Assembly: GCA_903813345.2 (NCBI GenBank)
Contig: CAIIXF020000004.1
Coordinates: 10,610,196-10,674,195, forward strand
From: Owenia fusiformis
Lineage: Eukaryota > Annelida > Polychaeta > Sabellida > Oweniidae
Direction: 5' to 3'
DNA length: 64,000 nt
The position numbers and the translations under genes are program-made. The notes beneath the pieces are model-generated. The model made no database searches and was not told the DNA's origin. It worked only from the letters and a program-made list of their open reading frames with translations. Every line of letters starts with the position of its first letter. Position 1 is the first letter of the stretch. This document shows positions 3,488 to 36,253 of the stretch, piece by piece.

Positions 3488-3727
3488 TAATATTTAAATC
3501 ATCAAGCAGTTCTGTTGTAAATTCCTTAACCTTCACTAGTTGTGATATTGCAACAGTTTTTCGATGCTCGAAACCTTTAGTTTTAAATGTTCTCCTTATA
3601 GTGCCATCTGCCAAACTTTGTGTAGTGTCGAAGATAAGAACCAGATTAAAATCACGTTCACATTGTGGTATTGTTGTAGTAGTTGGTAATGTGGTAGTAG
3701 TCTGTACTGTGGTAGTCGTAGTTGGTG
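3488..3727 (-). CDS. CA-VWA exon 15: linker and start of second VWA domain
   Basis: Acceptor ttgagttttgattgtag, donor GTAAGTTATTCG, 240 nt, phase 1 to 1. It begins with more Thr-rich linker (PTTTTTVQTTTTLPTTTTIP), then QCERDFNLVLIFDTTQSLAD, a new Cys plus VWA beta-1 strand with a D-T-T-Q-S MIDAS variant. It continues through the first helix to LDDLNI. The next exon was not found in the remaining 3.4 kb, so the gene runs off the left edge. Confidence 0.87.
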
Positions 3728-6700
3728 CTACAATCAAAACTCAATTTAAAATGTGGGCAGTGCCTCGAACTTTTTCGAGGACCTAAATATTGACCAAATG
3801 ATGGGGCGGGGTGACGGACAATTTTCTTCTTTGTAAAGTAAGGGCTCTTTTCGCCCAAGTTGATACGTGGTTTCCTTGGGATTGGAGCCTATTCGTGATA
3901 ATAATAAGAATTGAGAATTTGAGAGTAATTCCTGAAATAGAGACTAACAATATTTTTTACCCTCCGTGCAGAGTCTAGTTAAACTACAGAAGACGAAACT
4001 CTCTAAATTAAGAAGTGAAGTAAAAGGAATGCAAAGGGTAAATGTTTTTGAGTATTATCATTTAATATTTGATACTAATATGGACATTTCTTACCATCTG
4101 TAATAGGAGTACCACCAGTGACAATTTCGGTTAGTGGTTCAGTGGTAGTTGTAGGAGTTGGTGTGGTTGTAGGTTCAGGAGTTGTTGTATATGGGCAAGG
4201 AGTATAATCGTTTATCAAGAGAGAGACTTTTTCTGCTAGATCCGTGTCGTTAATATGGAACACACGTTCAGTTTGGCCTCCCACGAAATTATACATCTCA
4301 GTTTCTCCCTCTTTGCCCCATCTATGGACAGAATATTGCGATGTTAATATTTTACTTGTTTTCTTAATTCAAATTGATGTACCAATTTGTTAATTGATGA
4401 AAACGTACCTGTTGTCCAATTTTATCGAATATATATCCGCCCCTGTGTCTGCTATCTCCCAAGACTTATAGATCGCAGCTAGAATAAGAAACAATATGAG
4501 AAAATAATTTCCCTTTCGAAGAATTGAAAAATATTGTATTCTTGTATTAAAAAGTGGAAACATGTAATTTACAAAGGTATAACAATTGTCAAATGTTGTT
4601 CCTGACTCAGGCATTTTGGAATAATGTTTACTTAAGTTTGGATAAAAAATCAATTTTAAAATTCAACTTTTTTTATCTTTCAAAGGTCACTGAAGGCCAA
4701 TTCTCATTTAAAGTCAGATTCGAACTTCTAAGAACAACTATGTACATACAAGTGCTAAAGGGGAAGGACAAAAACTGTTACAGAACCAAACACGAAAAAG
4801 AAAACATCTAAGTGTACACCAGTCATAAAAAACAAACACCAACTATTCCACACAATAATTAATGCAAACTAAAATGAAACAATGTCGAATACTTCTTCCC
4901 CCATCATCCAAGTTCCATTAATACAATCCAGGAACTAAATTTGAAAAATGGTGAATTAGAAGCAAGTTGAAAAAGACCCCTTTTCACATTGAATATCAAC
5001 TATTTGTTGCCTTGGTAACAGTTACAAGTAGAACTGTGTTGAAAGTCAATACATGTCATCATATATGTGACAGAAAATATTTAAAGTCATCGATCAGTCA
5101 GTACCAACCAAGTTAATGAAAGTTGTAAGAATTTGTTACAGACGCCGATATTTGGAAACCATAACAGTATGTTACAACTTCTGTTGGTGACGGGACATTT
5201 ACTTATTATGACAGATTTAAAACCTTGTATATGGTGGTTGATATGTCAGAAACATCCGAAAAATTGAAGCCAGTTTACAATCATGATGCATTTGCTATGT
5301 AGTTCCCATATATCAAACACGAACAACTTAAATGGTTCAAAAAGATGCACATTGTGTGACCTTTGCGAAACTGAAACAATTAAACATTTTACATTAAGAT
5401 TCATCTTATCCTTTTATATTGTATCTTAAATGTAAACTATATTATACCAAAATGTATTCTCTCATATAAATGAGGCAATAAATATACAATACAATAAAGA
5501 AAGAAAGAGTTTTACTTTTGATAAAAGTGGTTATAATGATTTATTCAAGTATTAGAAAGGATTTCATCATGAGTCAAAAAGATAGTTACAAACAAAAAAG
5601 GAAAAGTAGTCAATTTTTTTTAAAAGATGCATACGTCAACTAAGGAATTTTAAAATACTCACGCCATCTGCCACCATACGGGAACGTCCTGCCGTCTGAG
5701 ACAATAAATACTATATCTTTAGAAAGTGGTAGTTTTCGTACACCATACCGACTACGCATATAGCGACTTAGGAAAAATCTGAAATAATAATAAGACTTAG
5801 GTGAGGAGCTATATACCATGTCATAACTTTGATATTCAAATATGAGCAGTTTTAATGAACTTGATTATGTTGAACAATAAACCGATTTATTTGCAAAACC
5901 AAGTCACAGATTTATATATAGCCATGTGCAGGTAAACATGCCGAGAGTTTCCGAATGATCCGCAACCCGTTTCAATGATGCGATAATACTTTTACCTTTT
6001 AAATTGCATAGAGTTAGCTGTAGTACAATGACGAGCGGCAAATCGTTTCGTTTCAAATAGGAACATGCACAATGTCCGGTGTAAAAGGGTAGGAGGTCCT
6101 ATCAAATTATGGTCCTACTTTCCATTGATTTATATGGTGACCTAAATACAACGCTTTCCCTCGTTACCTTATACGCAATCGGGGCCAGTAAGGGCCGTTA
6201 ACAATGGGGACCATAATCCCTGGGGGACCATCATTTCTTTCACACCGGGTCATACTTGCTCCGAAAAATACTCAAAAATACTCAATCTTCCGGGCGCCAC
6301 GTAGTGAAAACCCCTGGCCAAAGATTCTTTCAAAATCATGCAGTTTTTCACCATTTTGAGCTCTTCTCAAGTGATTTTAGCCATATTTGGGCCAAAATTG
6401 TCAAATGTGAACCCCCCTGGAAATTTTTGAAAACTGACTCCCCCCTTGGGAAATCCTGGCTACGGGCCTGTGTGACCAAGGCATAACTGGAAAACTTGTT
6501 CTGATCCCGGTTGTTTTGTGGAGTCACCATTCACATTTATGCGTGCGCGCGCAGCTCATCCACTGAACGAAACGCCACTTCCCGCAGAAATCACCGGGTA
6601 TTGAATTTTCCCTTGTTCAAACTGAGCTGAGACAAACTTTAGACAGTAGATATCGAGTGCTTGGGTTAAGTGAAAGTGACTAGAATTATCCATACTTTGA

Positions 6701-9700
6701 AAACGATATCAATCAGATTTGGACTCACTGACACTGAGGCTGTATTTTTGTATGCCCGCGGTGCTAGTGAATTGCGTGATGTTTTAAGACCTGCAGTGCT
6801 CATCTGTTTTCAAAAACAATAAGCTCATTCAAGTGTACTAACACACACATAATTATTTTGAAAGACATCATGGTTTATTGCAATTAATCTTCTGTGGTGC
6901 ACTAGCAACAAGCAGCTGTGAAAGAAATTATGGTCCCCGAGGGATTATGGTCCCCTTTCTTAACGGCCCTTACTGGCCCTGATTGCGCATAAGATAATGA
7001 GGGAAAGAGCTGTATTTAGGTCACCATATAAATCAATGGAGAGTAGGACCATGATTTGATAGAACCTCCTACCCTTTTACACCGGCGCGATTGACACGTA
7101 TGGCATTATTTTTGTTTCTTTATTCATTAAATTCAATATATTATTCGATATATGAAATATTGATTTTCGCTAAATTATTTTCCATTCGGTAAAAACGTTT
7201 ATATGTTTGTTACAGCAAATTAAGTTTTAAAAATAGCCAATCACTTAATACTATGTGCATTATATTACACATAATATGCACAATATTGAATTTCAATTTT
7301 GAACCCTACCAAAATAAGTTTGCCTATATTTACCGAATGGTTAATTTTTCTATGACATAGTTAATGCATTTTACCGTAAGCTAATTTGCTATTTACCGAA
7401 TGCAATAAAGTAATATTCGATAACTTTCGTTGTTGTTCGATATTTTGTCACGTGACCTCGAGATTTGCAAAATTGCCGCGCAGCTATTCTACATTGTTCA
7501 AATATATCACTTGACTGAAAGTCTCGTAAAGTATCGAAAAATAACGAAATTTATCGAATGTGGCATTCGGTATTTACCGAATATAAATAATTTAAATACC
7601 GAATGTACAAATAATTAATTGAATTATACGTGCGTTAAGACAAATAGATTCGCTGCATCACACAAATACATGTACACTGTGTATAAATATCAAATGTGAA
7701 TGCCAACACAAAGAACAAGTGAAACTATTTTGCGAATATAAATTTATAGATTATTACATTCGATAAAACAAAAAAACATTCGATAGATTTGGTAAATTGT
7801 TTGTTTTATTTGGTATTTATGGAATATTTAATGTACCGAATAAAGAAGCAGTTTAAACACCATAGACATACGCGAGCAGCCGACAAGGATGCCACAGCGT
7901 AATTAGCGTTTTGATGCAGGAAATATTATCCCTTTGAATATAAAATATATCTCCCCTTTGTTCATTCGGGCCTTTTGGGAGATGTGTATATAGATATTAT
8001 CCTATATGAGGTTCAGGATATTTGGATTATCCCGAGGCCAATGGAATATATCTGCCCAAGTCATACCAATCTAGGTCGTGTCATTATGGTGTAATGGATA
8101 GCACTTCGGACTCGTGTCCTCTAGGCCTGGGTTCGAGTCTAGTCGTTTCAAAACATTTGTTTTTTATTTTTGCTTTATGTCATATTCATCCACAATTAAA
8201 GGAGCAGGTGGGTTATCGCAAACAATTTCAGAAGGTTATATCTTGGATTATGACCATTTTCTGACAATGAAGACAAGTTTATCTTTTAGATCAATTCATT
8301 ATCCCAAAGAAAATCATGCACAGTAATAATAAATTCAAACAAACTCGGAGATATTTAACTAGCAATTAACCCATGCAATCATTTTTTACAATGTTTAACG
8401 CTGTTAAACAATGTAAAACTTTATTGCATTAAATTAAGTGTTCCCGATGTTATTTCTCCATTGAAAAATCTCATGCTATCCATTGGTTTCAGTTCATTTT
8501 TGTCATCCAAATTGAATATCTTTAAAGTCCCTTGAGCAATTAAATTTTCCTTTTAGGAAATCGAACATGTCTCAAAGCACATTCTAATTATACATTCAAC
8601 AATATAATAATAGGTTGCATTTTTGGTGAAAATTAGGTCAACATTTTTGAAAAAGTATGTTGATTGGTCCATTGCCCCTCTAATATCACTTAGGTCTGAT
8701 TAACTAAATTATCATTATATATACTTTTCTTGAAGATAATGAATGGATCTAAAAGATACACCCATGTTCATGATCAGAAAATATTCATAATTCAAGTTAG
8801 AATCGTTTGAAATTGTTTGCGATAACCTACGTGCTCCTTTCCCCCAGTATCACTTTTTTGCTCATATCAAGGGCGGACGTAATACAAAGAATATGCCTCG
8901 TTTGCAAATCAAATATAAATCAGTATACATATTGTACTAAGCCCCGGGTATCAAATCGGCCCTGTCTATTCATATTGTACGGAATGAAACAAAACGATCA
9001 CATTTGAAGTTGTCATTTACCCATTAAAATGTATTCATTTTTCCAATTAAGGATTGGGGTTTACCAATATAACAAGCAAGATTGTCTGTATCAAATATGG
9101 GCTCCGGGCCATCCTAGGACATGGCTAAAATCAATCACGTAATTAGCGATGTGTAATCACTCATCCACACGTATAAACCTGTAACTTTCACGCTTACCTG
9201 TAGAAAGTAGACTAATCCGACGTCATTTTCCTGCGCGCGCATAGAAGTACACGTTCATGCTTTGTTGAATACGCGTCTGTAAATTGCACGAATATGATAA
9301 TCTCATGTAAAAAAAACGTAAACTTTACGCTGGCCCACAGGAAATAAACAAATCTGATGTCATTTTTATGCGCGCGAATTGAAGTTCACGTTCAAGTTTT
9401 GTTAAATACGTGTAGCTTAACCTCTCTATTGGCCCGCCACTATGACGCGTCACATATTACTTAGATCGGACGGCTTGAGATACAGGCTTTATCCCTCGGA
9501 TTATGGGTATCTCGAACCCTGGAACCCTAGAGAATTTCACATATATTTCAATGGATAGACCCTTCATCTAAAACCTCCTGGTATTTTACCCTTTTATTTA
9601 CCTTTCTTTCAACTCAGAGAGGGCTCGGGATGTCCTCGTTTCACATATTTCAGTTTGACCAATTGGTATGTCATTCAAAAGTCTTATCGTCTCTGCATTA

Positions 9701-12700
9701 CTCGTTGTATCCCTTGCATAAAAGTTGTAATACGGCTCTCTATCGAACCTAAATAAATATAACCAAGATTAGCAATCGTACAAATCTTTTACATAAAAAG
9801 CTGTAAGGTGGATATTCATTACACCTAAATGAATATAACCAAATCAACTTCCTATTTGGTTTGTACTTATTTTAAATGAGAAATTATGATTATAACTACA
9901 GGGTGGTCCAAAAATGGGACACTTGTATTTCAAAAATAAATATTGATTTTCTTAATGGAAACATGCCAAATCATGTATCAGTGGATATGGAATAAACTTA
10001 TCATTTCGTTTCAAAACGGGTTTTCTGAAACTCGCAAAAAACATTTTTGTCAACTTTATTTATATAAACAGGCATTCAATATGTCCACCATTTTGATCAT
10101 TATATCCCTCCAGAGTTGACCTTAACTGTTCAAAAGCATCATTGATATGCTGTTGAGGCAATGAATTCCACTTCTCAACAATTCTATTCTTAATAAGGGA
10201 CTGAGTAGACGTTATGGGTTCATGGTGAACCAATTCTGTTTGGACCAACCCGTATACGAGGGTATATCATAAAGTTCTCATAATATCTCTCTATTTTTTA
10301 TTTTTCATTATATTCTGAATGTATAGAATAGAATGCTGTATTAATCTATCAAAAAAATATTCGGTATAACAGAACTATTATTTAAGAAATGGTTGCCCTA
10401 GTAACCGGAAATCAAGGCACCCGGGGCAAATACAAAATTGTGCAAGAATAGGCCCAAGTTCACCATGTTTAAAAGTATAATAAGTTATCAAATAAGCTAT
10501 GAAACACATCAAATTGTTAAATACCATGTATACTTTACTGTTTTGAACTATTATTATGGTTGTGTGAATTGTGCGATCTCATAATAAATAATTGTAACGC
10601 TAATCGACCACACATAGGATGTAATTTTGTTGATATCTTTGCAACATATTTGTTTTAGATCATCTTTAGTAAGAGCAAAGGATTTTTCGAACTAAACTAA
10701 ACCTTTTATTAGTATGAATACTAGTTTTGATCCCTGCGTCTATGTATCATCTTTAATACTTGGTCATTTCTGATCATTAAGCTTTGACTCTCAGAATCCG
10801 GTATCTCATCTAATGAAGCATGTAAGCATACCCTATGACATCACACAATTCACATGATTAATTTAGTTTATAGTAAAAGCAATGTTATAGTAAAATATAT
10901 ATATATTTCATTTATACCAAATATATATTGATAGATTGGTACAGTGTTCTATACTGCAGATTCTATAAAATTTCATTAGAATATATTGAAAAATAAAAAA
11001 ACTTAGAGAGATATTATGAGAACTTTATGGTATACCCTCGTATACCCGTTTTAGCAGCGTCATTTTAATAAGTCACATCTTTTATAAACTTTATACTCAC
11101 TTTTTACAACGGCAAGACAAATAAGGTTCGACTATATAATTACTTTGAAGTATTGTTCATTGTATACTCACTTTAACAGCGACACGACTATAATAGTAGT
11201 TGTGACGCTGATACGATGTGTGTTTAGTTACAATTAGCTGAAAGCAACGGCTATAATACAGAGATACTAGAATTCGGATTATCCGCGCAGCAGCAGAAAA
11301 ATGCAGAATTCCCCTAATTTGTAAGGAACACCTAATGTGAGTTACGAAATATGTTGCCGCGACAAAATGTAGAATTTTTTCAGAATTTTCACATTTTAGC
11401 TTGCAGAATTTTGATTTTTCATGAAGAATTTTGCAATTTGTAGTGCAGAATTCTAGTATCTGTGAAACTCTATATATACTTACTTTACTTTAGTAGCGTC
11501 ATGGCTACTAAGTCCCAGTTATTATAAATAAACAACATACTCACTTTAACAACGTTTCTACTAAGTTAAAGCCATCATACATCTTTTATCACTTAAACGG
11601 CGTCATGCCTACCAATTTACGGCTGGCTAATTATAACATAAATTCACTTGAACAGCGTCAATACTAGCAAATTGCGACCAATTATTTTCCAATACTCACC
11701 TTGACAGCGATCATCAATTTACGGCTAACCATAACTATATACTTACTTCATCAGCGTCATGACTACAGAGTTACGACCAATAATAACTTTATCTGTGACA
11801 TCAAGAAGCATTTGTTTTACTTCATCCATTTGTTCAAACACTGAACAACTTTGATCAATTACCCAAAAGACATTCATACAAGCTGGAATGAAATATTCAG
11901 GAAATTAAGTACCGAAGCCAATTAAGCGATGAAGTTTAAAGGGACTCGATAAAATTTGCTACATTGACCAAAGTGTTAAAATTTTCGAATTAGAAGGGCT
12001 TATTCGTTTTGAAGTTCCTAAATGCTTGCGACTTGACTGTCCCGTTGCTTTCGTAATCTTGGTTAGTTGGTCTGTTGGCAGAGTAGTCCTTCAGGGACGG
12101 CACGTCGCGGGTTCGATTCCTGAAGGATTATATCTGTTTTACTTTTTTGGTCGTAGGCGCGTTTGATATTACGCAGAAATAAACACGTATCAGAGTACTT
12201 TAGCCAGATGATGTCAGTTTTATAAAATATGTAAAATTAGTGTTTCATTCCGTTTTCGATACATGTGTGGGACATTTTGGTTATCTTGAGATGTAGCATT
12301 TCACAGTCCACCAATATATAGTACATACAATGTATTGTACAGGGCGTTCAATAAGTATTGCTAATTTTGTTATAACTTTTGTTATCTTGCATATTTCTTC
12401 ATGAAACTTTTACAACATAAGCAACACATATCTGACCTTATTCTATCCAAATTTTTGGACAACCGACTTAGTATTGACAAAGTTATGGTTACTAGGGTAA
12501 CCGTTGTCATGGATACGCAGGGCAACCTTAAGGGTTTACATGATGAATTATTGTTATACATCAAATAAACACGTTGATGAATAAACTGTTGATATGGTCA
12601 AATCTTGATGTTGTCAGTTTGAATTATATGTATTATCTAACAGCGGTGAAAATAGATCTGAGAGGAATATCGCACTAGAATCTCAATCAGCGGATGTCTG

Positions 12701-27700: not shown

Positions 27701-30700
27701 TAGTACCATGTGATCAAAAATACCATAGCGTTTTTAAAAATTCCCTCTGACAATTTTCTTTAAAAAAGACGAATTGCCTAGCGTATTGCCCGTCCTGGAA
27801 TTCTGACAACTGCACTGGACGAAAATAAAAATGTTCTTTAATATGATACTTGTACGTAATTATGTTATTTCATTGGTTATTGATATACTAAATGATTTAA
27901 GTAAGTGTCTACGGGTTAATATTCTATGTTTCTTTGAAATGCAAAGTGATCGTAGAGAATGTCTAGTATGGTAAGAATGCTTTTCGCAGCAATTTTTGCG
28001 GGCAATACATACTAAAAATCATTGAAAGATGAACAGGTATTGCTATCCACATCCATAGAAAAAAATGTTTGCCTAATACGCATTGGTACTGCACTCTTTA
28101 AACTAGTTACCAAAACGGATCCGATTCGGTAACAGAATATCGGAACTTCGAAGGTACGATTTTTCTTAATTCCTTATTTCACGTGTTTTATCACGACATT
28201 TTTATCACAAACATGTGCCTGTATCAAATGTTTAAGAAAATCTACACATTTGCGAACATATAGTTCAGAAGACACAGAATCGTCGATTTAATCATTCAAT
28301 ATTGTTACGTAAACGGAACGGGTTAAAAGTGCAGATCTTTACTTTTCTTGTTCTTTTTCTTCCATTGGATGAGTAATATTCTCTTTTACTGGACATCTAT
28401 AGAGGAACATGTTGTCATACGCTGAAGAGAAACGCTAACTAGAAACTCCTATGTCGCGTTTTAGACATGCATCACTAACCTGTATTGGTAATTGAGTATA
28501 AGGTTTTGTTTAATTTCATTAATCGTTGTAGAAATGCTAACTGAGAACTCCGTCAACACGTTTCAAGGCATCATACAATACTAACCTGTATTGGTAATTG
28601 AGTATAAAGTTTTGTTTAATTTCATTAATCGTTGTAGAAATGCTAACTGAGAACTCCGTCAACACGTTTCAAGGCATCATACAATACTAACCTGGATTGG
28701 TAATTGAGTATAAAGTTTTGTTTAATTTCATTAATCGTTGTAGAAATGCTAACTGAGAACTCCGTCAACACGTTTCAAGGCATCATACAATACTAACCTG
28801 AATTGGTAATTGAGTACAAAGTTTTGTTTAATTTCATTAATCGTTGTAGACATGCTAACTGAGAACTCCTGCGACACGTTTCAAGGCATCATACAATACT
28901 AACCTGGATTGGGAATTGAGTATAAGGTTTTGTTTAATGCTTGTAAGTTAGGGTTATCCTTCTCCATTCCCGATTCTGCGACATCTAAAACCTAAAACAA
29001 ATCAGGGGTTTTGAAAATGACGTTGGGACAGTATATTTTGATTGAAAGTTATATCCATTTCACAGCAAAATAAAAACTAAAGAAACAGGCATAACAGCAA
29101 CTTGTTAAGTCATAAGATAATTTACGTCAACGTGTTATGTAATAAACTTCAGGTACTGTCCCTCTCACTTTTTTTCAGGTACGGTCTAATATATAACATT
29201 TTTCCTCAAAATTCTTAATTTGACAAGTAAATCAACGAAGTAGAAAACCTTTAGGACCTTAATTTTACACGTTCACATATAAGTTCTGTTAAAAAGACGT
29301 GGGTAAAGCTCTCCGCTATCGAAAAAGATACATTTTTGAAAAATATCTCAAATTGTTTTTCATGTCACGAAAAGTAATATTTGCATCACTTAATTATGTT
29401 TATAACTGAACAAGAGGTCTATAAAAAGGCGTGGCTTTACCTCCCCACTACCGACATTTAGCAAACTGCTACTAAAATATTATTGCAAATAACGTTTAAC
29501 TTACCGAAAACAGAACGCTAAATATGGCTATCCCATCAGGTTTTCCCACGGCGTCGGTATAGTTATCGTACAATAGTCCATTCCAAGTAACAATTTGCAA
29601 CTGTAAAATGTAAAATGAATACTTCGATCACAGTATCACTCGGAAAAGTCGTGATGCAAAAACAGTATTTTTGTATCAAAATGGCAAGCCTTCCGGTGAC
29701 AGATTTTCGAATGATATTTTGTTTCCCAAATTTAAGCCCTTTTCTTGGATTAGTTTCATCTCTATCATGTTGCATACCTACAGTTAGCGCACGATCTACA
29801 ATTTAAAACAAGACATTAACACTACAAATCTCACCAACTAGTTGCTCACAAAATTATGAGTTCAATCTCAAGTTGTAGATAAGTTTAAATGTATAAGCAC
29901 TAGTGCCAAAGGGAAAGGACCAAAAATTGTAATGGAACTTAGCAAGAAAAAGCAAACTCTAAGTGCATACCAGTCAAGAAAAACAAACCCCATATAGCCC
30001 AAAACCATGATCTAACGTGAAAAGAAACAATGTCTAATGCCCCCTTTCCCCCCACCATTCAAGAACCAATATCACAATCCAAGACCAGAAGACCAAGGGA
30101 CATTTCATTCATACTGAAGTCATTACAATACATGTTGAAGAAAAAATTAGAAATTGATAGTCAATACTCATAACCTCAAAAATATGTGTAGATACAAGTA
30201 CTCATTCAAGATAGAGCACTCAGTCTCAAATGATGTGGGATAGATAAAATCTATAGGCCTTTCAAAGGGTCAACACCCATTCACAAAAGCCATCGCCATA
30301 ATCCATAAAACACAATAATTCACAATGGTGAATTTAAAATAGTCAATTTGAAGCAATTGGAAAAAGACCCTTTCGACCTTAAGAAGGTATTTGAAAAAGT
30401 TGAAAAAGACGTATTATCACCACCTTGCCGAGTCTGTTCTAGAAGTATCAGTGCAAGTTTAGAAGGCATTTATTTTACCGTATTACATAAACCTAGCGAA
30501 CCATTCGTATGGAAGTCAATGGAGCCGAAGGTCGGCAATATATTCCTGTATACCCGCCAAACTTTGTTACCATGACAATTTTATGACGTCATAACATGTA
30601 AACAAAGCGATTTCGATTTGAATCGTGTAAAACTTCGGTCTTTCGATCCCCATTTCTTCATATTATCTTCATGAAATGTTATGTAAATGTACTTTAGGTA

Positions 30701-33700
30701 TGTAATACAACAATTATGTCCGTATCATTGAATATATCCGTCGTCAATATAAGCCTCGCAAGCTCGGGCTGTATTGACGTCAGACTTCAGGCATATATTG
30801 AAAGGGACATAATCAGTGGACAGAAACGCGTCGAGTATTTTCGTCTGGTACAACTTGAAATACTGGACCAGACCTCCATTTTTGATAGGTAGGTTTAATT
30901 TTACTCGGTAGCCTGTGATCGTTTCACAGGGTTTCCTAACCTAAAAATAGGCTCATCAAATTCCGAGTACATTTGGGAACATCCAATTCTTATAAAATAA
31001 CAGCTATCCATCTAGTTTATTTGTGATGTGGGATTGAGCAAAGAAATATTTTGATTTTCAGGAAATACACGAATCGGGGTAAGTGTGTACTGTGTATTGA
31101 GGATGGGGGCCCCTTTGATCATTTATTTTAACTTTCAAGGTAAGACGTCATAACTTTATAGCCTGGTATTTCATTTTTGGACCATACTTTTTATTTTTAG
31201 CGTTATGTTGTTAATACTAAAGGTATTACATTGAAACTTTTAGGTCTTAGAGGCAATATGATGAAGTTATAATACTTCTATACTATTCATAGTTTCTGAG
31301 ATATTAACTCTCAAAGTTCGTGACGTTTTTTATCCATCCGATATATCTTTTTATTTTACCATTTCGTTGACAAGATATGCATTTTTCCTGTATATGAACT
31401 AACAATACAGCCTCCAATCTGCAACTTTTAGCTTAAGGTGCTATGGAAGTGAACAGGAAATGACGAAACAGGAAATGACAATTTTTTTGCATTTTTAGAT
31501 ATTTTTTGAATAAAGATAACAGGGTTCTGGTTTGACCTCCACATATCATTTACATGACCAGGATCACAATGTGCATGGTCAGAATGACCCTAAACATGAT
31601 GATATAACCTTTTTAGCCCTTTGAAAGTGTGACTGAAAAAAGCTAAGAGTAGGAGCGTAGGGATAGTCACTGAACAGAATATTTTGAATTTTTCAGAAAA
31701 TGTGCCCAATATAATGCTTTAACTGATACAATCTTTGAAATTTTAGAAAATTGTCTGAAACAAAAATGGCGGTCATAAAAAGGAAAATTGATCGCTTTTC
31801 AAATCAGTTTTTTCCTTTTTTCCTTTTTCTATGAATGATATCAAATTTTCAAAGATTGTATCGTTTAGAGCAATATATTGGGCACATTTTCTGAAAAATT
31901 CAAAATTAAGTGCGTATAAGAATGGTCATAAGAAGCCCGTGAAGGGTCATGAATGAAAGAAAGCCCTCTGAAATTCCGTCAAAATTGCAGGTTATTTCTT
32001 CATTTTTTGCTAAAATTACATGATTTTGAGGGCCCATATCTCACTGAAATTGCTACAATGTAGCGATTTTTCATTTTTACAGGCTAGATACTCGTGCAAG
32101 GTCAACAGAAACAGTAAGCATGTGTGAATGTTAAATTGCTACGTTGTAGCAATATTTATTTAAAAATACAGCTGTGGGGGAAACTGCTATTTACTTAGAT
32201 TTGGGCGAAAATGGCCTAATTTCAGTCAAAATCCTCGGGACACAGGGCCTTTGTCGTAGATTTAGTCAATGATGCAACTCTTAGTAGAAGGTGTGCCATG
32301 TAGGGAATGAAAGCTGTTTGTCAGAGGTATGATTTTCTTGAATAAACTCAGAGATAGTCAGGTTAGATTTGTGACGTCACAGTGGCAAAGATATACTAGC
32401 ATATTCAGACGTATTTGGGGTAGGGCAAATTAACCCTTTCTAGCCTAAATGGATAAATTTTTCTCATATTCAGCCAGTTCCAACGTTTTTATGCATTTTT
32501 GAACTAAAAATGATATTTTCTGCCAAAAAAAGTTGCAGAGACAAAAATCAGCTTGATGTCATAAAACATTAAGGTATGAGGTTCCATATCCATCCGCCAA
32601 AAGGTATGACCCCTTTATAGTCCATTTAAAAACTTGTGGTTTGTTCTAGATAATCCCATAGTATGCCACTATTTGGTATCAAAATAAAGAGGAGGAGTTC
32701 AACTTTCATTTGAATTACGAAAATGGCGATGTAGGTCAAAATAGTTCCGACCTTGAGCATGTTTACTACGCGTTTGCCCGTCATCTCAGAATTGAGGAAA
32801 TGGTAGCAAACGCGAGTTACAATTAATGGACGCTGATATCTCAAAAAGTAACCTGACTCCCTATAATATGATGTAGATCAATCGAACCCCTATATAAACA
32901 GGTACATAACACTATTGGGGGTAAGCGTTTTATAGTTGATCACGAACGCCATATGTGCAAAGTATTGTTCTGAATTTTCAAATTTGGTGTTGGATTACGG
33001 TACTCAAACCATAATCTATAACCGGAAGTCTGGCCATCTTTATGCATCACGATACCCCTCCCCCAGTGAGTATGACGTTCATGCATTGCCTGTTGTGTCT
33101 ATTTGACTTATAAGATAATAAGACAGTTCCCATTCTATTCGCGATTTCTGATACTCAACTTCAACATCCATTCTTAAATCTAAAATTGAAATCAAAATAC
33201 AAATCATAGCAACAAAACTAGACGCTATAATCGATTGAAATCTTTCGTATTGTAGAATTGGTTACTGCGATTACATTCGGATTACTAGTAGTAAGAATTT
33301 TACCTCAAGTTTTGCCTGGTCGCCATCTATGATATGTTCTGCAGGCAAGTTAAATTTGGCGTCGTGTACCAAAAAAACTCCAGGTAGGTTACCGTCGGAA
33401 AAATCCAGGTGATACCTTCTTGGAATGTTAATCCGAACTGAATATAGAAATTAAGAATTCAGTGAACATTTGAAATATTAGCTTGGTTTTCCTGTTATAT
33501 GTTACTTCATTTTTTAAAAATTGGTCGTAATCACAGCTTCTTTTATCAATGACGGTATGTCTTTTGATCGATTTCGACACATTGAATACTATTATCCATA
33601 ACCTTTTTGGCCAAACAAGGAAAATGGGAATTTTTGCACAACCTTGGAAATTCATGAATGCTTAAATTCGAAAACCAAGACACTCGTGACTGTTACCACA

Positions 33701-36253
33701 CTTTGAATGAGAACAATAAGGATAGCGTTGACTTTTTAAAGCCATTAGCTTTACTCACCAGCATTTCCAATATTCTCTAATGTAGAATTTCGCAATCTGC
33801 TATCTAAACCCCAACTAAATAACTGACTCTCAAGTAGGGCGATGTCTAGTTCAGTATCCTGTGTTGTTATATCGATCGGCGATTGGTTCTGGCCATCGCA
33901 TAATGGATAGTCATCTTTCCAGTTAGAAGGACCTGTTTGAAAATGTATTTGTTTATTTGTTTTCTGTTTATGCCGCCCTTTAAGATTTTGGAAACTGGAA
34001 TTTCAATTTCAGATCTCGAGTGAAAGCCCGTTTGTGTGCCATGAATCTTATAAAAACGCCAAAGAGCATAAATCTTACCCGAAGGTGAACTTGGATCATA
34101 ACTAAAATCTGAAAATGCAAATAATAAACGGTGTAGTAAGTAATTAAAATGAATATCAAGTATTACAGCTAAATGTTCAAAAACAGACTGCTCGGGGCTC
34201 ACACGACTATTCCAAGGGTATTGGACGCATCGAGAGGGAACTTTTCTTAACTCCAGGCCGTCTCGGACCATAGCCTACAAGGAGTAGAGGACCCACTTGA
34301 AGTGGAATAATGTTAAAGCGAGACCGTTTCGGCATTGGGAGCCCATTGCCCATTTCATTGGACTCAAAATTTTGAACCTTTTTTGTGCACTTCACTTCAC
34401 TTTGGAAATACATTTTTATCAAATCAAGTGAAGTACCACGAAAACCATAAAAATACCATTTTTGAATTAGAATTTTGTTGTCAATACTGTCAAATGCCTT
34501 GGAGAAATAAAAAAATACAGACCAATGGCCTTAAGGACTGTCAATAGATGGCGAAAAATTCAGTAGGTTTAATAGCATACTTTAACATGTAAAAAATCCT
34601 CCAAAAATCTCCAAAGATAAATTTTATTGAAAATATCCAAAACTTCTAATTTTGAATCTTAAAACATGTTTGTAAATAATGATGAAGGAAAATATGATAT
34701 TTATTAGATATATCTAAAGAATTTGAAGTTTCAAAACAGGAATATTTACACATTAACCAATGGGCCAGTTGTGGAGAACAACCTAGTAGTTAACTGCCAT
34801 CTATACGAGTTCTGGCTCCCATTGAGTACTCTCCTTGTTCAAAAGATTTCCCTGTTTTTTCGACAAAATTAAGGATAGCCATAAAAGTTGATTTTTTCTC
34901 TAAAACCGAATTGATTGATAATAAAATTTCCATTTTGTCAATAAAAGCAGAGAATCTTTAAAGTTGTTTTAGAAAAAAAACAGGACGATGATAGGACAAG
35001 GATTAGTGAACAATTTCTTTTTTTTTGTAAAAAGGAATGACTTTTGCAACTTTTAGATGATCAGTAAAACACCATTACTAAAAAATAAATTAAAAATATA
35101 CAGAAGGGGTTGTAAAAGTGTGATAGTGGAATAAATAATGACTTGTATATTGGATTGAGTACATTTTCTGAATATAAGGAATGGCATTTTGTCCAACTCC
35201 AATAAAAAACCAAGGTCCCTCGGAGTGATTTATTCCAAAACCAATAGTAACAAATTATATAATTTTTGTCTTGACTCACTTATTCATGTAAGAATGTATT
35301 GTAGAATTGTTTACTGCATTATATATCAATATTAATATCTATGATTTAAATTTAACTTCAAATGCATATCTCACTTATCACCAGTATACATTTTTTATTT
35401 TGAAACACATTTAGGGCAAAACCATTTACACATCTATGACAAATCCAAGATGGCTGTCACAATTTCAGATGCTTGCACATTTGAATAAGTTAAAAATAAT
35501 AAATGGTCCGCAAACAATATTTAGCCAAACTTAAATAGTAGTAGTCAAACCCCAGAGAATCCGGAAATATGTTCTGTTGAAGAACCCCATTTCTTATTAC
35601 TTGGAACTTTTAGTATTGATATTGTTCACTGATTACTGTTTTCCAAAGCAAATCGCCCGTTTTTTTAATCATGGAGGGTTTTAGCAACAGGCGATTCTCA
35701 AGAATTCTTTTCGAAAATGTTCAAAATATATGTTTCTACAGTATATTCATTGACATTAAATACTTATGAGGAACGCAATGATGCCAGACAGAATTAAACA
35801 TACAAAATAAAGGTAGTCAAATGATGTAATCAGATAAGATATATCTTACCTATCTTATCTCACCCCCAAAATGCAATCTGATTTCGGCGTCGTTTTGGTG
35901 CCAAATTTCGGTGCCGTTTCGGCACCATATAATAAAACCTTCATTTTCCTTTTTTCTATGATTTTTACACTGGTTTTCATCACATTTTCTCTTTTTAATC
36001 TTTGACCTTCCTTCTAGTCATGAGAACATCTTCATATTTTGGTGGTGACTCAAAAATTATTTCAATCTAGAGGGTAGTAAATGAGGCCGAATGTCCTTTT
36101 TTAAGAACTATATGATATCCAATTATGGTTTATTGTTATTTGTTCTCCGTGGACATATGCATTTAAAGTCGGACCAGTCAAATAGAAAATGCGAACATAA
36201 CCGTTACCTTGTCCATATGCAAGGAGAGGTAGTAGTAGTAAGATCAACATCAT
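3488..36253 (-). CDS. Secreted carbonic-anhydrase-like / VWA-domain protein (15 exons, 3' end off the window)
   Basis: Joining the 15 exons listed separately gives at least 608 residues: a signal peptide (1-15), an alpha-carbonic-anhydrase domain (about 20-290), a first VWA domain (about 302-485), a Thr/Pro-rich linker (about 488-548) and the first strand of a second VWA domain (from about 550). Junctions have GT/AG borders and matching phases, with one exception at exon 11. The CA domain keeps the QSPIDI and GSFSSPPC landmarks and the cysteine pair typical of secreted alpha-CAs. The three zinc-histidine sites read D, K and Q, so catalysis is not expected. VWA1 has an intact DxSxS MIDAS motif and a later SDG. 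Inference: an extracellular, possibly shell- or skeleton-matrix protein. I know of no named family with this exact layout, so no symbol is given. Introns are long and full of transposons. Confidence 0.85.
4095..4321 (-). CDS. CA-VWA exon 14: VWA1 end and Thr/Pro linker
   Basis: Acceptor aatattctgtccatag, donor GTAAGAAATG, 227 nt, phase 2 to 1. It codes the last VWA helix (INDTDLAEKVSLLI), a Cys (YTPCPY) and then a run of Thr and Pro (TTTPEPTTTPTPTTTTEPL). Such linkers are commonly O-glycosylated spacers between extracellular domains. Confidence 0.88.
4409..4478 (-). CDS. CA-VWA exon 13: VWA1
   Basis: Acceptor gtttcttattctag, donor GTACGT, 70 nt, phase 1 to 2. It codes AIYKSWEIADTGADIYSIKL and then DN, equivalent to the helix-strand pair (A-x-x-x-K-x-x-G-x-x-I-Y-x-I) in the second half of VWA domains. 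Confidence 0.85.
4680..5000. repeat. Dispersed repeat, copy 1 of 3
   Basis: This stretch shares wording with 29820-30410 and 38150-38690, for example aaagtcagattcgaacttct with its variants, and gtgctaaaggggaaggac (compare tgccaaagggaaaggacc). Diverged, no ORF, probably an old transposon family. Confidence 0.6.
5663..5778 (-). CDS. CA-VWA exon 12: VWA1, SDG motif
   Basis: Acceptor attattatttcag, donor GTGAGTATTTT, 116 nt, phase 2 to 1. It codes FFLSRYMRSRYGVRK and then DIVFIVSDGRTFPYGG. A hydrophobic strand ending in (T/S)DG is the VWA beta-4 / second MIDAS-loop signature. Confidence 0.88.
6075..7087. mobile_element. ~1-kb foldback element with ~170-bp terminal inverted repeats
   Basis: Left end ccggtgtaaaagggtaggag from 6077 and right end ctcctacccttttacaccgg ending 7085 are inverted copies. 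The match continues through gttaacaatggggaccataa and its complement, about 170 bp on each side. No transposase is visible. No clear target duplication. It contains a nested segment (6240-6490) related to the hairpin unit at 55.70-55.85 kb and a foldback fragment (6740-6930) related to copies at 25.5 and 36.4 kb. Confidence 0.8.
7130..7860. repeat. AT-rich block with many ACCGAAT / ATTCGGT motifs
   Basis: At least a dozen copies of taccgaat, attcggta, attcgata and tatcgaat occur in both orientations, including the palindromic cluster gcattcggtatttaccgaat near 7565. No ORF of interest. It may be a degraded satellite or a palindromic MITE cluster. Confidence 0.6.
8075..8150 (+). repeat. tRNA-like sequence (SINE head or decayed tRNA)
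   Basis: The stretch tatggtgtaatggatagcac fits a tRNA D-arm/A-box and gggttcgagtc fits a T-arm/B-box at the right spacing (about 35 nt). The anticodon stem and acceptor stem do not pair well, so I do not call a functional tRNA. A tRNA-derived SINE head or decayed tRNA-Gln/Arg-like gene is likely. Confidence 0.45.
9187..9413. repeat. Imperfect ~135-bp direct repeat
   Basis: Two tandem copies share the order ctaatc/caaatc, tgatgtcatttt, tgcgcgcg, gaagt-cacgttca, ttttgtt-aatacg. The first runs 9187-9285 and the second 9324-9413. No gene. The surrounding 8155-9600 stretch otherwise shows nothing I can name. Confidence 0.6.
9602..9749 (-). CDS. CA-VWA exon 11: VWA1 middle, acceptor uncertain
   Basis: The donor is GTAAAT (phase 2). 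The first acceptor, atatttatttag at 9749, is strong, but reading from it in the phase left by exon 10 reaches a TAA just after a TTTTT run. An acceptor 13 nt further in (GATAGAGAG, exon from 9736) gives an open frame: RITTFYARDTTSNAETIRLL and then NDIPIGQTEICETRTSRAL, a good VWA middle. Either the inner acceptor is used or the T-run has gained a base. The domain identity is safe; the exact start is not. Confidence 0.7.
9899..10250 (-). mobile_element. Tc1/mariner-type element remnant with transposase C-terminus
   Basis: A TA at 9897-9898 precedes cagggtggtccaaaaatggg, a typical mariner/IS630-type terminus. The minus strand at 10060-10248 then codes the transposase tail: RIVEKWNSLPQQHINDAF ... 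GGHIECLFI-stop. The W-x-x-(I/L)PQ-x-x-I and C-terminal GGHIE patterns are characteristic. The rest is cut off by the MITE that begins near 10249. Confidence 0.75.
10249..11047. mobile_element. ~800-bp MITE with ~120-bp inverted ends
   Basis: The left arm starts cccgtatacgagggtatatc; the right arm ends gtataccctcgtatacccg at 11047. The match continues about 120 bp (ataaagttctcataatatct and complement). It sits inside the mariner remnant, so it inserted later. The interior is AT-rich and non-coding. Confidence 0.82.
11045..11746 (-). repeat. Degenerate ~50-bp array derived from the exon-10 tail and donor
   Basis: On the plus strand the pattern actcactt-aacagcgtcat-ctac-aa-ttacg recurs at least seven times (near 11047, 11094, 11166, 11486, 11533, 11590, 11645 and 11696), and the real exon end at 11741 has the same layout. 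Read on the minus strand, each copy is an eroded version of the last ~30 nt of exon 10 plus its donor; several keep AAGTGAGT or AAGGTGAGT. Copies are more diverged than those after exon 6, so this array is older. Confidence 0.75.
11747..11882 (-). CDS. CA-VWA exon 10: first VWA domain, MIDAS
   Basis: Acceptor gaatatttcattccag, donor GTAAGTATA, 136 nt, phase 1 to 2. It codes CMNVFWVIDQSCSVFEQMDE and continues to GRNSVVMTLM. The hydrophobic strand followed by D-Q-S-C-S is the VWA beta-1/DxSxS metal-ion-dependent adhesion site; a Cys just before the strand is usual in extracellular VWA domains. The exon tail and donor seed a degenerate repeat array in the following intron. Confidence 0.88.
12061..12131 (+). 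repeat. tRNA-like sequence
   Basis: The stretch gttggtctgttggcagagta fits a tRNA A-box region and gcgggttcgattcctgaagg a B-box/T-arm, with spacing near that of a tRNA. Pairing in the anticodon arm is imperfect. Most likely a SINE head or decayed tRNA. Confidence 0.4.
13124..14582 (+). repeat. Left 1.4-kb inverted arm
   Basis: It begins caggatcttaagaggttctg and ends acgacagaaaggagcaaggt; the reverse complement recurs at 21868-23303 with few differences. It contains two to three internal direct repeats built on tactccattggagtattttt and cggattaatccggattttct (near 13895, 14040 and 14200). It also has two tRNA-like stretches near 14300-14370 and 14475-14540. The 91-codon ORF at 13826 is repeat sequence, not a gene. 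Confidence 0.9.
14832..15110. repeat. ATTGY microsatellite at the end of an otherwise unassigned stretch
   Basis: 15060-15108 carries (attgt/attgc)n, e.g. acattgcattgcattgtatt. Such pentamer tails often mark the 3' end of a SINE or LINE. The stretch 14583-15060 and the following 15110-16540 hold nothing else I can name apart from a short cgttcccaatacgtcctcag motif at 15841, also seen in the element at 20.2-21.0 kb. Confidence 0.5.
16440..16965. repeat. Short hairpin elements, three copies
   Basis: Copy A (16547-16643) is a ~97-bp hairpin: ttaatccggtagccgacagg at the left, ccttccggctaccggattaa at the right. Copies B (16731-16824) and C (from 16916) repeat the left half; B also keeps cttccggattaacc. 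A fragment (gttgcattcgcgaatacaag) is also found at 36330. Just before (16446-16492) are three gggtttcgga-type repeats related to the 45-kb array. Confidence 0.7.
17794..17991. mobile_element. ~200-bp MITE
   Basis: Ends aaaaagaatacagggtacag and its partner ctgtagcctgtattcctttt form ~35-bp inverted repeats, continuing into ttgcaaat/atttgcaa. Non-coding. The surrounding 16966-20085 intron sequence has no other recognisable feature. Confidence 0.7.
20178..20975. mobile_element. ~800-bp element of short-period CGTTC/ACGTCC repeats
   Basis: It is bounded by ctatcacaccaaactagttc and the inverted gaactagtttggtgtgatag. The interior is a near-periodic run (about 11-13 nt) of cgttc, acgtcc and their complements. 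A third copy of the end motif (ttgtttggtgtgatag) lies at 20576-20591, suggesting an internal or nested unit. No coding potential beyond chance. Confidence 0.65.
21868..23303 (-). repeat. Right 1.4-kb inverted arm
   Basis: Reverse-complement partner of 13124-14582. The 84-codon minus-strand ORF at 22348-22602 reproduces the one in the left arm almost exactly, showing very low divergence between the arms. Differences are mostly in the tRNA-like segment (21900-22150), and the left arm carries a short extra segment near 14075. Confidence 0.9.
23783..24451. mobile_element. ~670-bp MITE with ~115-bp inverted ends and TA duplication
   Basis: Left gtaccccacacaagtttttg and right caaaaacttgtgtggggtac are inverted and extend over about 115 bp (to tccaacattgga). 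TA flanks both sides (23781-23782 and 24452-24453), as expected for a Tc1/mariner-mobilised MITE. It lies just downstream of exon 9 in the intron. Confidence 0.85.
24530..24689 (-). CDS. CA-VWA exon 9: end of CA domain and bridge
   Basis: Acceptor gttcggtttag, donor GTAAGAG, 160 nt, phase 0 to 1. It begins FEAFRRLLGSDGNPILDGLS and then RPVQRLNER, the C-terminal alpha-CA block (QLxAFRxL ... RPVQPLNGR). About 20 further residues, rich in Asp, Pro and Arg and ending DDLKE, bridge to the VWA domain. The split codon T+CT joins in frame to exon 10, which supports a true fusion rather than two neighbouring genes. Confidence 0.9.
25096..25192 (-). CDS. CA-VWA exon 8: GSFSSPPC signature
   Basis: Acceptor gttttaattacag, donor GTAATTG, 97 nt, phase 2 to 0. 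It codes YYQYKGSFSSPPCDENVLRI and then VFADKIQMSKAQ. This is the Y-x-GSLTTPPCxExVxWxV block of alpha-CAs. Ser replaces the Thr199 equivalent; the PPC cysteine fits the second half of the secreted-CA disulfide. It is one of the clearest family matches in the gene. Confidence 0.93.
25500..26125. repeat. Foldback element, family also at 6.7 and 36.4 kb
   Basis: The left part (25510-25740: aagtaaattgcgtaatattt ... gaataaaacaaaaagccccc) and the right part (25975-26125: gggcttattttaattatta ... tattatgcaactcacttgct) are diverged inverted copies. The same words recur at 36395-36800 and, in part, at 6740-6930. Non-coding. Confidence 0.65.
26165..27183 (+). mobile_element. Decayed mariner-like element with transposase fragment
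   Basis: TA (26163-26164) precedes gagggtagctcaataaaaat; the right end atttttattgagacactctg ends at 27183 and is followed by TA. The plus strand at 26481-26708 codes a transposase C-terminal stretch: FGNRIIALTILAEWPTRSPD and then LTSCISSCGTKVFKAIPNDP. The W-P-x-R-S-PDL motif is that of mariner/IS630 transposases. The upstream catalytic region is lost or too decayed to read. It lies in the intron between exons 8 and 7 region boundaries, inserted in host intron sequence. Confidence 0.8.
27303..27378 (-). CDS. CA-VWA exon 7
   Basis: Acceptor ttctgttattcag, donor GTAATATT, 76 nt, phase 1 to 2. Joining exon 6 (...NP, G split) gives DVADLPSNANALKLRYIIPS then LRRN and a split Arg. In alpha-CAs this is the L-x-x-LLP segment that precedes Y-x-Y-x-GS. 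The phases lock exactly onto exons 6 and 8. Confidence 0.88.
27460..27558 (-). other. Possible cryptic or alternative exon resembling exon 6
   Basis: After an acceptor-like gatatgcag, an open phase-0 stretch of 32 codons starts LLISNPYENMFPLLDDVFEH and ends NPTRI-stop. Placed after exon 5 it would continue ...IFSVLFS in the same way exon 6 does (a hydrophobic strand, then NP and an amphipathic helix). There is no convincing GT donor before the stop, so it would act as a terminal exon or be a decayed duplicate. It could also be chance. Confidence 0.35.
28440..28898 (-). repeat. 106-bp tandem array copying the exon-6 tail and its 5' splice site
   Basis: The motif ctaacctg, the complement of the exon-6 end plus GTTAG donor, occurs at 28475, 28581, 28687 and 28793, and in the real exon at 28899: an exact 106-bp period. 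Each unit contains about 34 nt of exon-like sequence (NKTLYSI-TNP in frame), the donor, and about 70 bp of intron. Units 1-4 are nearly identical to each other, with a few changes from the true exon tail. A donor in any unit would be reached only after an in-frame TAG directly past the true junction. Confidence 0.92.
28904..28991 (-). CDS. CA-VWA exon 6
   Basis: Acceptor gatttgttttag, donor GTTAGT, 88 nt, phase 0 to 1. It codes VLDVAESGMEKDNPNLQALN followed by KTLYSIPNP, equivalent to the variable helix after GVFL in alpha-CAs (pattern ENPALQKLxDALxSI). The last ~34 nt and the donor are repeated four more times downstream in the intron at 106-bp intervals. Confidence 0.9.
29505..29600 (-). 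CDS. CA-VWA exon 5: CA core with the third zinc ligand lost
   Basis: Acceptor cattttacag, donor GTAAGT, 96 nt, phase 0 to 0. It codes LQIVTWNGLLYDNY and then AVGKPDGIAIFSVLFS. This matches the ELHLVHWN ... AVGKPDGLAVLGVFL block of alpha-CAs. The His119 equivalent (ELH) is Gln in this protein (LELQ across the exon 4/5 join), while the Glu117 equivalent is kept. Confidence 0.92.
29820..30410. repeat. Dispersed repeat, copy 2 of 3
   Basis: It shares caccaactagttgctcacaa with 38160 (caccacctagttgctcacaa), and agtgccaaagggaaaggacc and ttggaaaaagaccctttcga with copies at 4680-5000 and 38150-38690. Non-coding. Confidence 0.6.
30411..33303. other. Intron sequence with small inverted repeats
   Basis: 31681-31744 and 31843-31907 form a ~64-bp inverted repeat (cagaaaatgtgcccaatata and partner tatattgggcacattttctg). 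Small palindromes occur at 30750-30780 and around 32050-32145 (gctacaatgtagc, gctacgttgtagc). No exon is recognised between CA-VWA exons 5 and 4. Confidence 0.55.
33304..33437 (-). CDS. CA-VWA exon 4: CA core with the first two zinc ligands lost
   Basis: Acceptor tttctatattcag, donor GTAAAAT, 134 nt, phase 1 to 0. After INIPRRYHLDF the exon reads VFLVHDAKFNLPAEHIIDG. In active alpha-CAs the equivalent segment is Q-F-H-F-H-W-G ... SEHTVDG. The AEHIIDG half (including the Glu106 equivalent) aligns clearly, but the two histidines of HFHWG fall on D and K; the only nearby His is displaced by one. The exon ends KLE, just before the third ligand. Confidence 0.9.
33759..33932 (-). CDS. CA-VWA exon 3: CA domain start, QSPIDI motif
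   Basis: Acceptor attttcaaacag, donor GTGAGT, 174 nt, phase 1 to 1. It codes a stretch beginning PSNWKDDYPLCDG and continuing QNQSPIDI, the family signature near the N-terminus of alpha-CAs. The Cys in YPLC fits the first half of the conserved secreted-CA disulfide. The exon ends LENIGNA, where active CAs usually have L-x-N-x-G-H; the proton-shuttle His64 equivalent is absent here. Confidence 0.92.
34079..34108 (-). CDS. CA-VWA exon 2 (30-nt micro-exon)
   Basis: Acceptor tttgcattttcag and donor GTAAG bracket 30 nt coding FSYDPSSPS, with split codons at both ends (D before, G after). Phase 1 in and phase 1 out match exons 1 and 3. The residues correspond to the short lead-in (W/F-x-Y ... GP) at the start of alpha-carbonic-anhydrase domains. 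Confidence 0.85.
34207..34875 (-). pseudogene. Decayed LINE reverse-transcriptase fragment
   Basis: Minus-strand reading gives ILNFVEKTGKSFEQGEYS (34800-34870), then KAFDSIDNKILIQKWYFYGF and RGTSLDLIKMYF (34410-34500), the (D)LSKAFDSID block with the following helix of jockey/CR1-type reverse transcriptases. After it an eroded GVPQGSILGPLL-like region is recognisable in IIPLQVGPLLLVGY (34265-34310). Frames shift and stops intervene, and no intact ORF remains. It lies in CA-VWA intron 1. Confidence 0.7.
36208..36253 (-). CDS. CA-VWA exon 1: start codon and signal peptide
   Basis: Two adjacent ATG codons begin MMLILLLLPLLAYGQ, a short hydrophobic leader ending in a plausible signal-peptidase site, then one base before the donor GTAACGG (phase 1). 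A good polypyrimidine-AG (gttcacttttcag) sits just upstream of the ATG on the minus strand, so a 5'-UTR intron and an upstream non-coding exon are likely. The first in-frame ATG was taken as the start. Confidence 0.75.

What the first reader, a model, noticed from the sequence alone, without database searches (positions are those of the whole stretch)
3488..36253. Carbonic-anhydrase-like domain fused to VWA domains in one secreted protein
Fifteen minus-strand exons join by splice phase into signal peptide, alpha-CA domain, VWA, Thr/Pro linker and second VWA. The CA-to-VWA join (exon 9 to 10) uses a split Ser codon in matching phase. CA and VWA domains are each known in skeletal matrix proteins; I do not know a named family with this layout. 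It could couple a CO2/carbonate-binding or structural module to VWA-mediated matrix assembly.
Basis: partly seen in the sequence, partly recalled or inferred. Interest (0 to 1): 0.85.

Follow-up and report, generated by a model that had tools for sequence, protein, structure and literature searches.

The report
Dead carbonic anhydrase fused to VWA
An animal genome, probably an annelid worm's, carries seven related genes in which a carbonic-anhydrase fold that has lost its zinc site is joined to an adhesion-type VWA domain, so the enzyme fold has probably become a binding part of a secreted protein.

Summary
The fusion is real; the enzymatic and skeletal reading is not supported. The window holds 14 coding exons of one minus-strand gene. 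With 10 kb from left of the window it closes as 18 coding exons with a stop codon, 801 aa: signal-peptide-like start, full-length alpha-CA domain (Pfam 1-254/254, E 2.7e-48), VWA, Thr/Pro linker, second VWA. Six other loci in the same genome keep CA then VWA in the same order. The join intron is only 133 nt in one of them, which rules out two separate genes there. dN/dS is 0.20-0.37 for three close pairs. None of the seven keeps all three zinc histidines (five keep none, one keeps 1, one keeps 2), while the VWA1 metal site is identical in 7 of 7. Best reading: a secreted matrix or adhesion family with a pseudo-enzyme CA module. The genome resembles Owenia fusiformis, a tube-building worm (circumstantial). 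No paper with CA and VWA on one chain appeared in ten search listings or the passages I opened. Other animal genomes could not be searched. No transcript was available.

The parts
36208..36253 (-). Coding exon 1: MMLILLLLPLLAYGQ, signal-peptide-like
   Evidence: ATG plus hydrophobic core, donor phase 1; a hydrophobic exon 1 candidate found upstream of the other 6 loci too. Assigned by hydrophobicity; no signal-peptide program was run.
33759..33932 (-). Coding exon 2: CA domain N-terminus (GPSNWKDDYPLCDGQNQSPIDI)
   Evidence: (PF00194 2-56, E 4.5e-9), splice sites
33304..33437 (-). Coding exon 3: CA segment that would carry H94/H96; here K and N
29505..29600 (-). Coding exon 4: CA segment that would carry H119; here Q
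28904..28991 (-). Coding exon 5 of the CA domain
   Evidence: exon 5 of locus B aligns at the same phases
27303..27378 (-). Coding exon 6 of the CA domain, found by comparison with locus B
25096..25192 (-). Coding exon 7: YYQYKGSFSSPPCDEN
   Evidence: (PF00194 172-217, E 1.2e-9)
24530..24689 (-). Coding exon 8: end of CA domain, short connector, first base of the split Ser codon
11883..24529 (-). Intron at the CA-VWA join, 12,647 nt, phase 1
11747..11882 (-). Coding exon 9: start of VWA1 (CMNVFWVIDQSCS, MIDAS DxSxS)
9602..9748 (-). Coding exon 10: VWA1, MIDAS Thr
5663..5778 (-). Coding exon 11: VWA1, MIDAS Asp (VSDGR)
4409..4478 (-). Coding exon 12: VWA1
4095..4321 (-). Coding exon 13: end of VWA1 and first part of the Thr/Pro linker
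3488..3727 (-). Coding exon 14: rest of the Thr/Pro linker and start of VWA2 (CERDFNLVLIFDTTQS); the gene continues for 4 exons left of the window to -9497

Best explanation
One gene encodes a multidomain protein: signal-peptide-like start, alpha-CA fold without a zinc site, VWA1, Thr/Pro linker, VWA2. It is one of seven paralogues. Shown by sequence: architecture, order, purifying selection between close pairs, loss of the CA zinc site, conservation of the VWA metal (MIDAS) site. Inferred: secretion, and that the CA fold now serves as a rigid ligand-binding module, as CA-like domains do in receptor phosphatases, while the VWA domains bind matrix partners in a metal-dependent way. Together they would cross-link or organise a secreted extracellular material. 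In an oweniid-like worm the likeliest materials are the tube lining or cement, mucus, or cuticle.
For: Full-length CA and two VWA stretches in the spliced A, B, E and F proteins. Complete reading frames to a stop in 5 of 7 genes (A, B, E, F, G). Join introns A-G 12647, 1395, 295, 314, 133, 387, 1249 nt; join codon Ser in 6 of 7, Ala in G. dN/dS 0.37 (A-B), 0.20 (D-E), 0.20 (F-G). H94/H96/H119 equivalents: A K/N/Q, B I/N/Q, C I/K/Q, D F/F/M, E N/N/T, F H/R/Q, G H/R/H; VWA1 MIDAS residues D, S, S, T, D identical in 7 of 7; the two CA cysteines (C23, C203 positions) in 7 of 7, fitting an oxidising compartment. Control: HFHWG codons occur at 11 of 15 other CA matches of this type in the genome and at 0 of 7 here, Fisher p 0.004 (the 15 were found by the CA profile, so they lean towards intact sequences).
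Against: No transcript or protein evidence; function and tissue are inferred from domains; no structure was predicted. The loci B-G were modelled with A's phases imposed, so equal phase is partly built in. At the join, donor scores are positive in 6 of 7 (F -3.0), but acceptor scores are positive only in A and E (B -3.1, C -1.6, D -0.9, F -6.4, G -2.0), and B has a better-scoring acceptor 16 nt upstream that would break the frame. No VWA2 was found for D. C lacks exon 6 in my model, and its VWA2 continuation about 23.5 kb downstream is assigned by position. F and G lack the Thr/Pro linker. VWA2 of A, B and C has Thr in place of the first MIDAS Ser.
Confidence: 0.62

Rival explanations
1. Two neighbouring genes, a CA-like gene and a VWA gene, joined only by the reader's splicing.
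For: The join intron in the window is 12.6 kb and has a pair of 949-nt inverted repeats inside it. Several join acceptors score poorly. No transcript was seen.
Against: Same order at six other loci with join introns of 133-1395 nt; in E the CA frame reaches a stop within 8 nt of the donor, leaving 133 nt for a gene end and a new gene start.
Confidence: 0.02
2. A secreted bicarbonate or pH sensor: the zinc-less CA pocket still binds bicarbonate or CO2 and changes what the VWA domains bind.
For: PTPRG has a CA-like domain lacking catalytic histidines and is discussed as an HCO3- sensor (PMC8773835, passages). F and G keep one and two of the three histidines.
Against: Pocket residues differ widely between paralogues (T200 position S, H or N; H94 position K, I, F, N or H), which does not suggest one conserved small ligand.
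Confidence: 0.12
3. A biomineral matrix protein: CA and VWA modules recruited to carbonate deposition.
For: CA and VWA domains are both reported in mollusc shell and coral skeleton proteomes (passages of PMC7747718; PMC5379566; PMC11959691; PMC8194122).
Against: Zinc site lost; the likely source animal builds sediment tubes. A tubeworm study reports no CA in its non-calcified tube, although VWA proteins are enriched there (PMC8476170 passages).
Confidence: 0.08
4. An immune or pattern-recognition family: tandem, diverging copies binding varied ligands.
For: Three copies within about 211 kb on C4, two adjacent on C1; variable CA pocket.
Against: dN/dS of 0.20-0.37 over whole proteins shows constraint rather than diversification; site-wise tests were not done.
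Confidence: 0.1

Closest known systems
CA-related (acatalytic) domains of receptor phosphatases PTPRG/PTPRZ
   Same: Extracellular alpha-CA fold without key histidines (PTPRG: PMC8773835 passages), joined to other extracellular modules; PTPRZ chains are among the PDB sequence matches (3jxf, E 1.3e-19).
   Different: No phosphatase or fibronectin-III match in the Pfam scans of A, B, E and F; VWA domains instead. No test for a membrane anchor was run.
Nacrein / N66 mollusc shell CAs
   Same: Secreted CA domain with extra low-complexity sequence (PMC3374290 passages).
   Different: Nacrein carries Gly-X-Asn repeats, not VWA; this family has lost the zinc site.
VWA matrix proteins (Pif/BMSP, collagen VI)
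   Same: Secreted VWA proteins; the only PDB sequence match of the VWA part at E up to 0.01 is collagen VI alpha-3 (E 3.8e-4).
   Different: No chitin-binding or collagen match in A, B, E, F; a CA fold instead.
Carb::Aldo fusion of Colepidae ciliates
   Same: Another CA domain fused to a foreign domain (PMC13344042 passages).
   Different: Canonical catalytic CA domain, aldo-keto reductase partner, ciliates; the passages seen name VWA as a separately expanded family.

Membership tests
Catalytic alpha-carbonic anhydrase | Alpha-CA fold by sequence profile over the whole domain | tested here: met
   PF00194 1-254/254, E 2.7e-48
Catalytic alpha-carbonic anhydrase | Three zinc-binding histidines (H94, H96, H119; numbering recalled) | tested here: not met
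   None of 7 copies has all three; A has none
Catalytic alpha-carbonic anhydrase | CO2 hydration | not testable with these tools
   Needs recombinant protein
CA-related proteins (acatalytic) | CA fold retained with zinc ligands lost | tested here: met
CA-related proteins (acatalytic) | Descent from the vertebrate CARP or PTPRG/Z lineage | not tested
   No animal CA set on hand for a tree; the best of the 60 PDB matches shown (of 239) are named carbonic anhydrases
VWA domain, MIDAS type | DxSxS...T...D metal site (motif recalled) | tested here: met
   VWA1 7 of 7; VWA2 in the 5 full genes, with Thr for the first Ser in A and B
Nacrein-type shell CA | Gly-X-Asn repeat in or beside the CA domain | tested here: not met
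   No such repeat seen by eye in the 7 aligned sequences; feature as in PMC3374290
Pif/BMSP shell matrix proteins | VWA plus chitin-binding domain | tested here: not met
   No chitin-binding hit in A, B, E, F; C, D and G were not scanned with Pfam

The most novel reading that the evidence does not exclude
An undescribed animal protein family, pseudo-CA-VWA-VWA, arose by one fusion and expanded to seven genes. The enzyme fold degraded step by step (G keeps two zinc histidines, F one, A-E none) while the adhesive metal site stayed fixed, turning an enzyme into a structural or adhesive part of a worm's secreted tube or matrix. If its relatives lie in calcifying lophotrochozoans, it would show the CA and VWA halves of the shell toolkit already joined in an animal without a shell.
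Probability: 0.4. Interest if true: 0.66.

Novelty: new variant of a known kind. Interest (0 to 1): 0.52.

Why it matters
CA and VWA domains are among the domains most often reported as shared in shell and coral skeleton proteomes (abstracts or passages of PMC5379566, and PMC11959691). A conserved fusion of the two with the enzyme half inactivated would be a clean case of an enzyme fold recruited as a binding module. It also warns against reading CA plus VWA as proof of biomineralisation, and offers seven paralogues at different stages of zinc-site loss for biochemical comparison.

Tried and rejected
Scanning single frames with Pfam found only two CA exons over the cut-off and one weak VWA exon among ten frames, so the gene was built by hand from phase, splice score and paralogue comparison. 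An exon 6 search for C and for the pairs D/E and F/G under A's phases failed; in D-G the segment reads as merged with exon 7, and C stays unresolved. A search for gene D's VWA2 found nothing nearby. The catalytic reading was rejected on the histidines. None of the listings named a CA plus VWA chain; (exact phrases) found 0 papers. Most listed papers were not opened; of fifteen opened, all by passages or one section, none described such a chain in what I saw. Structure prediction was not used: its rule accepts proteins read letter for letter from the DNA, and a spliced protein is not that. Other animal genomes were not searchable (the genome has no relatives in the tool).

Full report
Observation. 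The window is C4:10610196-10674195 of a 498-Mb genome in 525 contigs. On the minus strand I built a gene from open frames, splice scores and phases. Fourteen coding exons lie in the window, 36253 to 3488, all GT-AG and phase-consistent. Exon 6 (27378-27303) was found only by comparison with a paralogue. Four more exons lie left of the window, and the last ends in a stop codon, giving 801 aa. Pfam on the spliced protein gives Carb_anhydrase 1-254 of 254 (E 2.7e-48) and VWA with two stretches (E 1.8e-23). The exon count is 14 in the window and 18 for the whole gene.

Fusion test. Protein searches of the same genome gave exon matches in the same CA-then-VWA order at six other loci: B C4:10812134-10798108, C C4:10777911 to at least 10742651, D C3:27362949-27369683, E C1:14783603-14798384, F C1:3026288-3040473, G C1:3046236-3067188. 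Five of the seven (A, B, E, F, G) give complete frames with both VWA domains and a stop. C is partial: one CA exon is missing from the model, and matches to the rest of VWA2 lie at C4:10719154-10717837. D shows no VWA2. The paralogue models imposed A's phases, so phase equality is partly built in. The independent facts are the conserved order, the lengths of the join introns (12647, 1395, 295, 314, 133, 387 and 1249 nt for A-G) and open frames running through the join. In E only 133 nt separate the two halves. Against this, join donors score above zero in six of seven, but join acceptors only in A and E. The join codon is Ser in six and Ala in G.

Selection. Codon comparisons give dN/dS 0.37 for A-B over 778 codons, 0.20 for D-E over 510 and 0.20 for F-G over 737; the two deeper pairs tried (A-E, A-G) are saturated at synonymous sites. 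A tree of the seven groups A-B-C, D-E and F-G with support of 100/99 or better; the order within A-B-C is open.

Active site. In the seven-way alignment, positions equivalent to H94/H96/H119 read A K/N/Q, B I/N/Q, C I/K/Q, D F/F/M, E N/N/T, F H/R/Q, G H/R/H (CA II numbering recalled). None of seven keeps three. As a control, codons for HFHWG occur at 11 of 15 other CA profile matches that cover that motif (of 63 listed, combined by hand) against 0 of 7 here (Fisher p 0.004). That control leans towards intact CAs, because the profile found them; of the seven, only F's exon 3 was in that list. HFHWG codons also occur by chance elsewhere: 40 sites in all, 16 for the reversed control pattern. The VWA1 MIDAS residues are identical in 7 of 7, as are the two cysteines of the CA fold. 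So the enzyme site decayed while the adhesion site was held.

Organism. No named match was possible. Nine contigs carry forkhead matches (C1, C3, C4, C5, C6, C8, C9, C10, C11; 38 matches), with close groups on C8 and C10. Owenia fusiformis has 35 Fox genes on nine of 12 chromosomes with tandem foxQ2 copies on two, and a 505.8-Mb assembly with 12 chromosome-scale scaffolds (PMC9539403, section 6; PMC9977687, passages). I did not test that the close groups here are foxQ2, and chromosome numbers differ. All 63 CA matches lie on contigs C1-C5 and C12. This is circumstantial. Tubes of the related Owenia collaris are sediment grains on a secreted lining (PMC4375521, passages); that oweniids lack a carbonate skeleton is recalled.

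Mechanism. Shown: architecture, selection, zinc-site loss, MIDAS conservation. Inferred: secretion (hydrophobic exon 1 candidate at all seven loci), binding role of the CA fold by analogy with PTPRG/PTPRZ (PMC8773835, passages), and matrix cross-linking through metal-dependent VWA contacts and an extended Thr/Pro linker. The linker is absent in F and G, so it is not essential.

Novelty. Ten term and phrase searches of the open-access library gave no listing that named CA and VWA on one chain. In the passages or sections seen of fifteen papers, including shell, brachiopod, coral and tubeworm proteomes, none is described. The library lacks most subscription papers, and protein databases of animals were not on hand, so a described or catalogued relative may exist. 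I call it a new variant of a known kind: a pseudo-enzyme CA module in a VWA protein.

Noticed in passing
window:13127-14075 and 22353-23301: Inside the CA-VWA join intron, inverted repeat arms of 949 nt, 100% complementary, 8.3 kb apart; perhaps a young duplication or mobile element pair.
   Followed up: partly
window:28474-28938: Tandem array, 106-bp unit, 4.4 copies, overlapping the 3' end of CA exon 5 (28991-28904): copies of the exon end and its donor appear to have spread into the intron.
   Followed up: partly
window:50489-55306 (-): LINE-type element with two long open frames: 392 aa with a zinc knuckle, 1206 aa with endonuclease and reverse transcriptase domains.
   Followed up: partly
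window:58647-60470 (+): A 608-aa open frame with a full-length amiloride-sensitive sodium channel (DEG/ENaC) match, E 4.2e-64.
   Followed up: partly
window:1-914 and leftwards in L001; window:1372-2331: 348-bp tandem repeat at the left window edge, with similar frames repeating leftwards inside the VWA2 intron, and a 479-bp two-copy tandem at 97%.
   Followed up: no
C1:37796582-37866941: About 40 VWA matches within 70 kb, many with equal scores and even spacing; perhaps one giant VWA gene or tandem genes.
   Followed up: no
C1:3026288-3067188 (genes F, G): Adjacent CA-VWA copies that keep one (F) and two (G) of the three zinc histidines and have no Thr/Pro linker; candidates for the least changed state.
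   Followed up: partly
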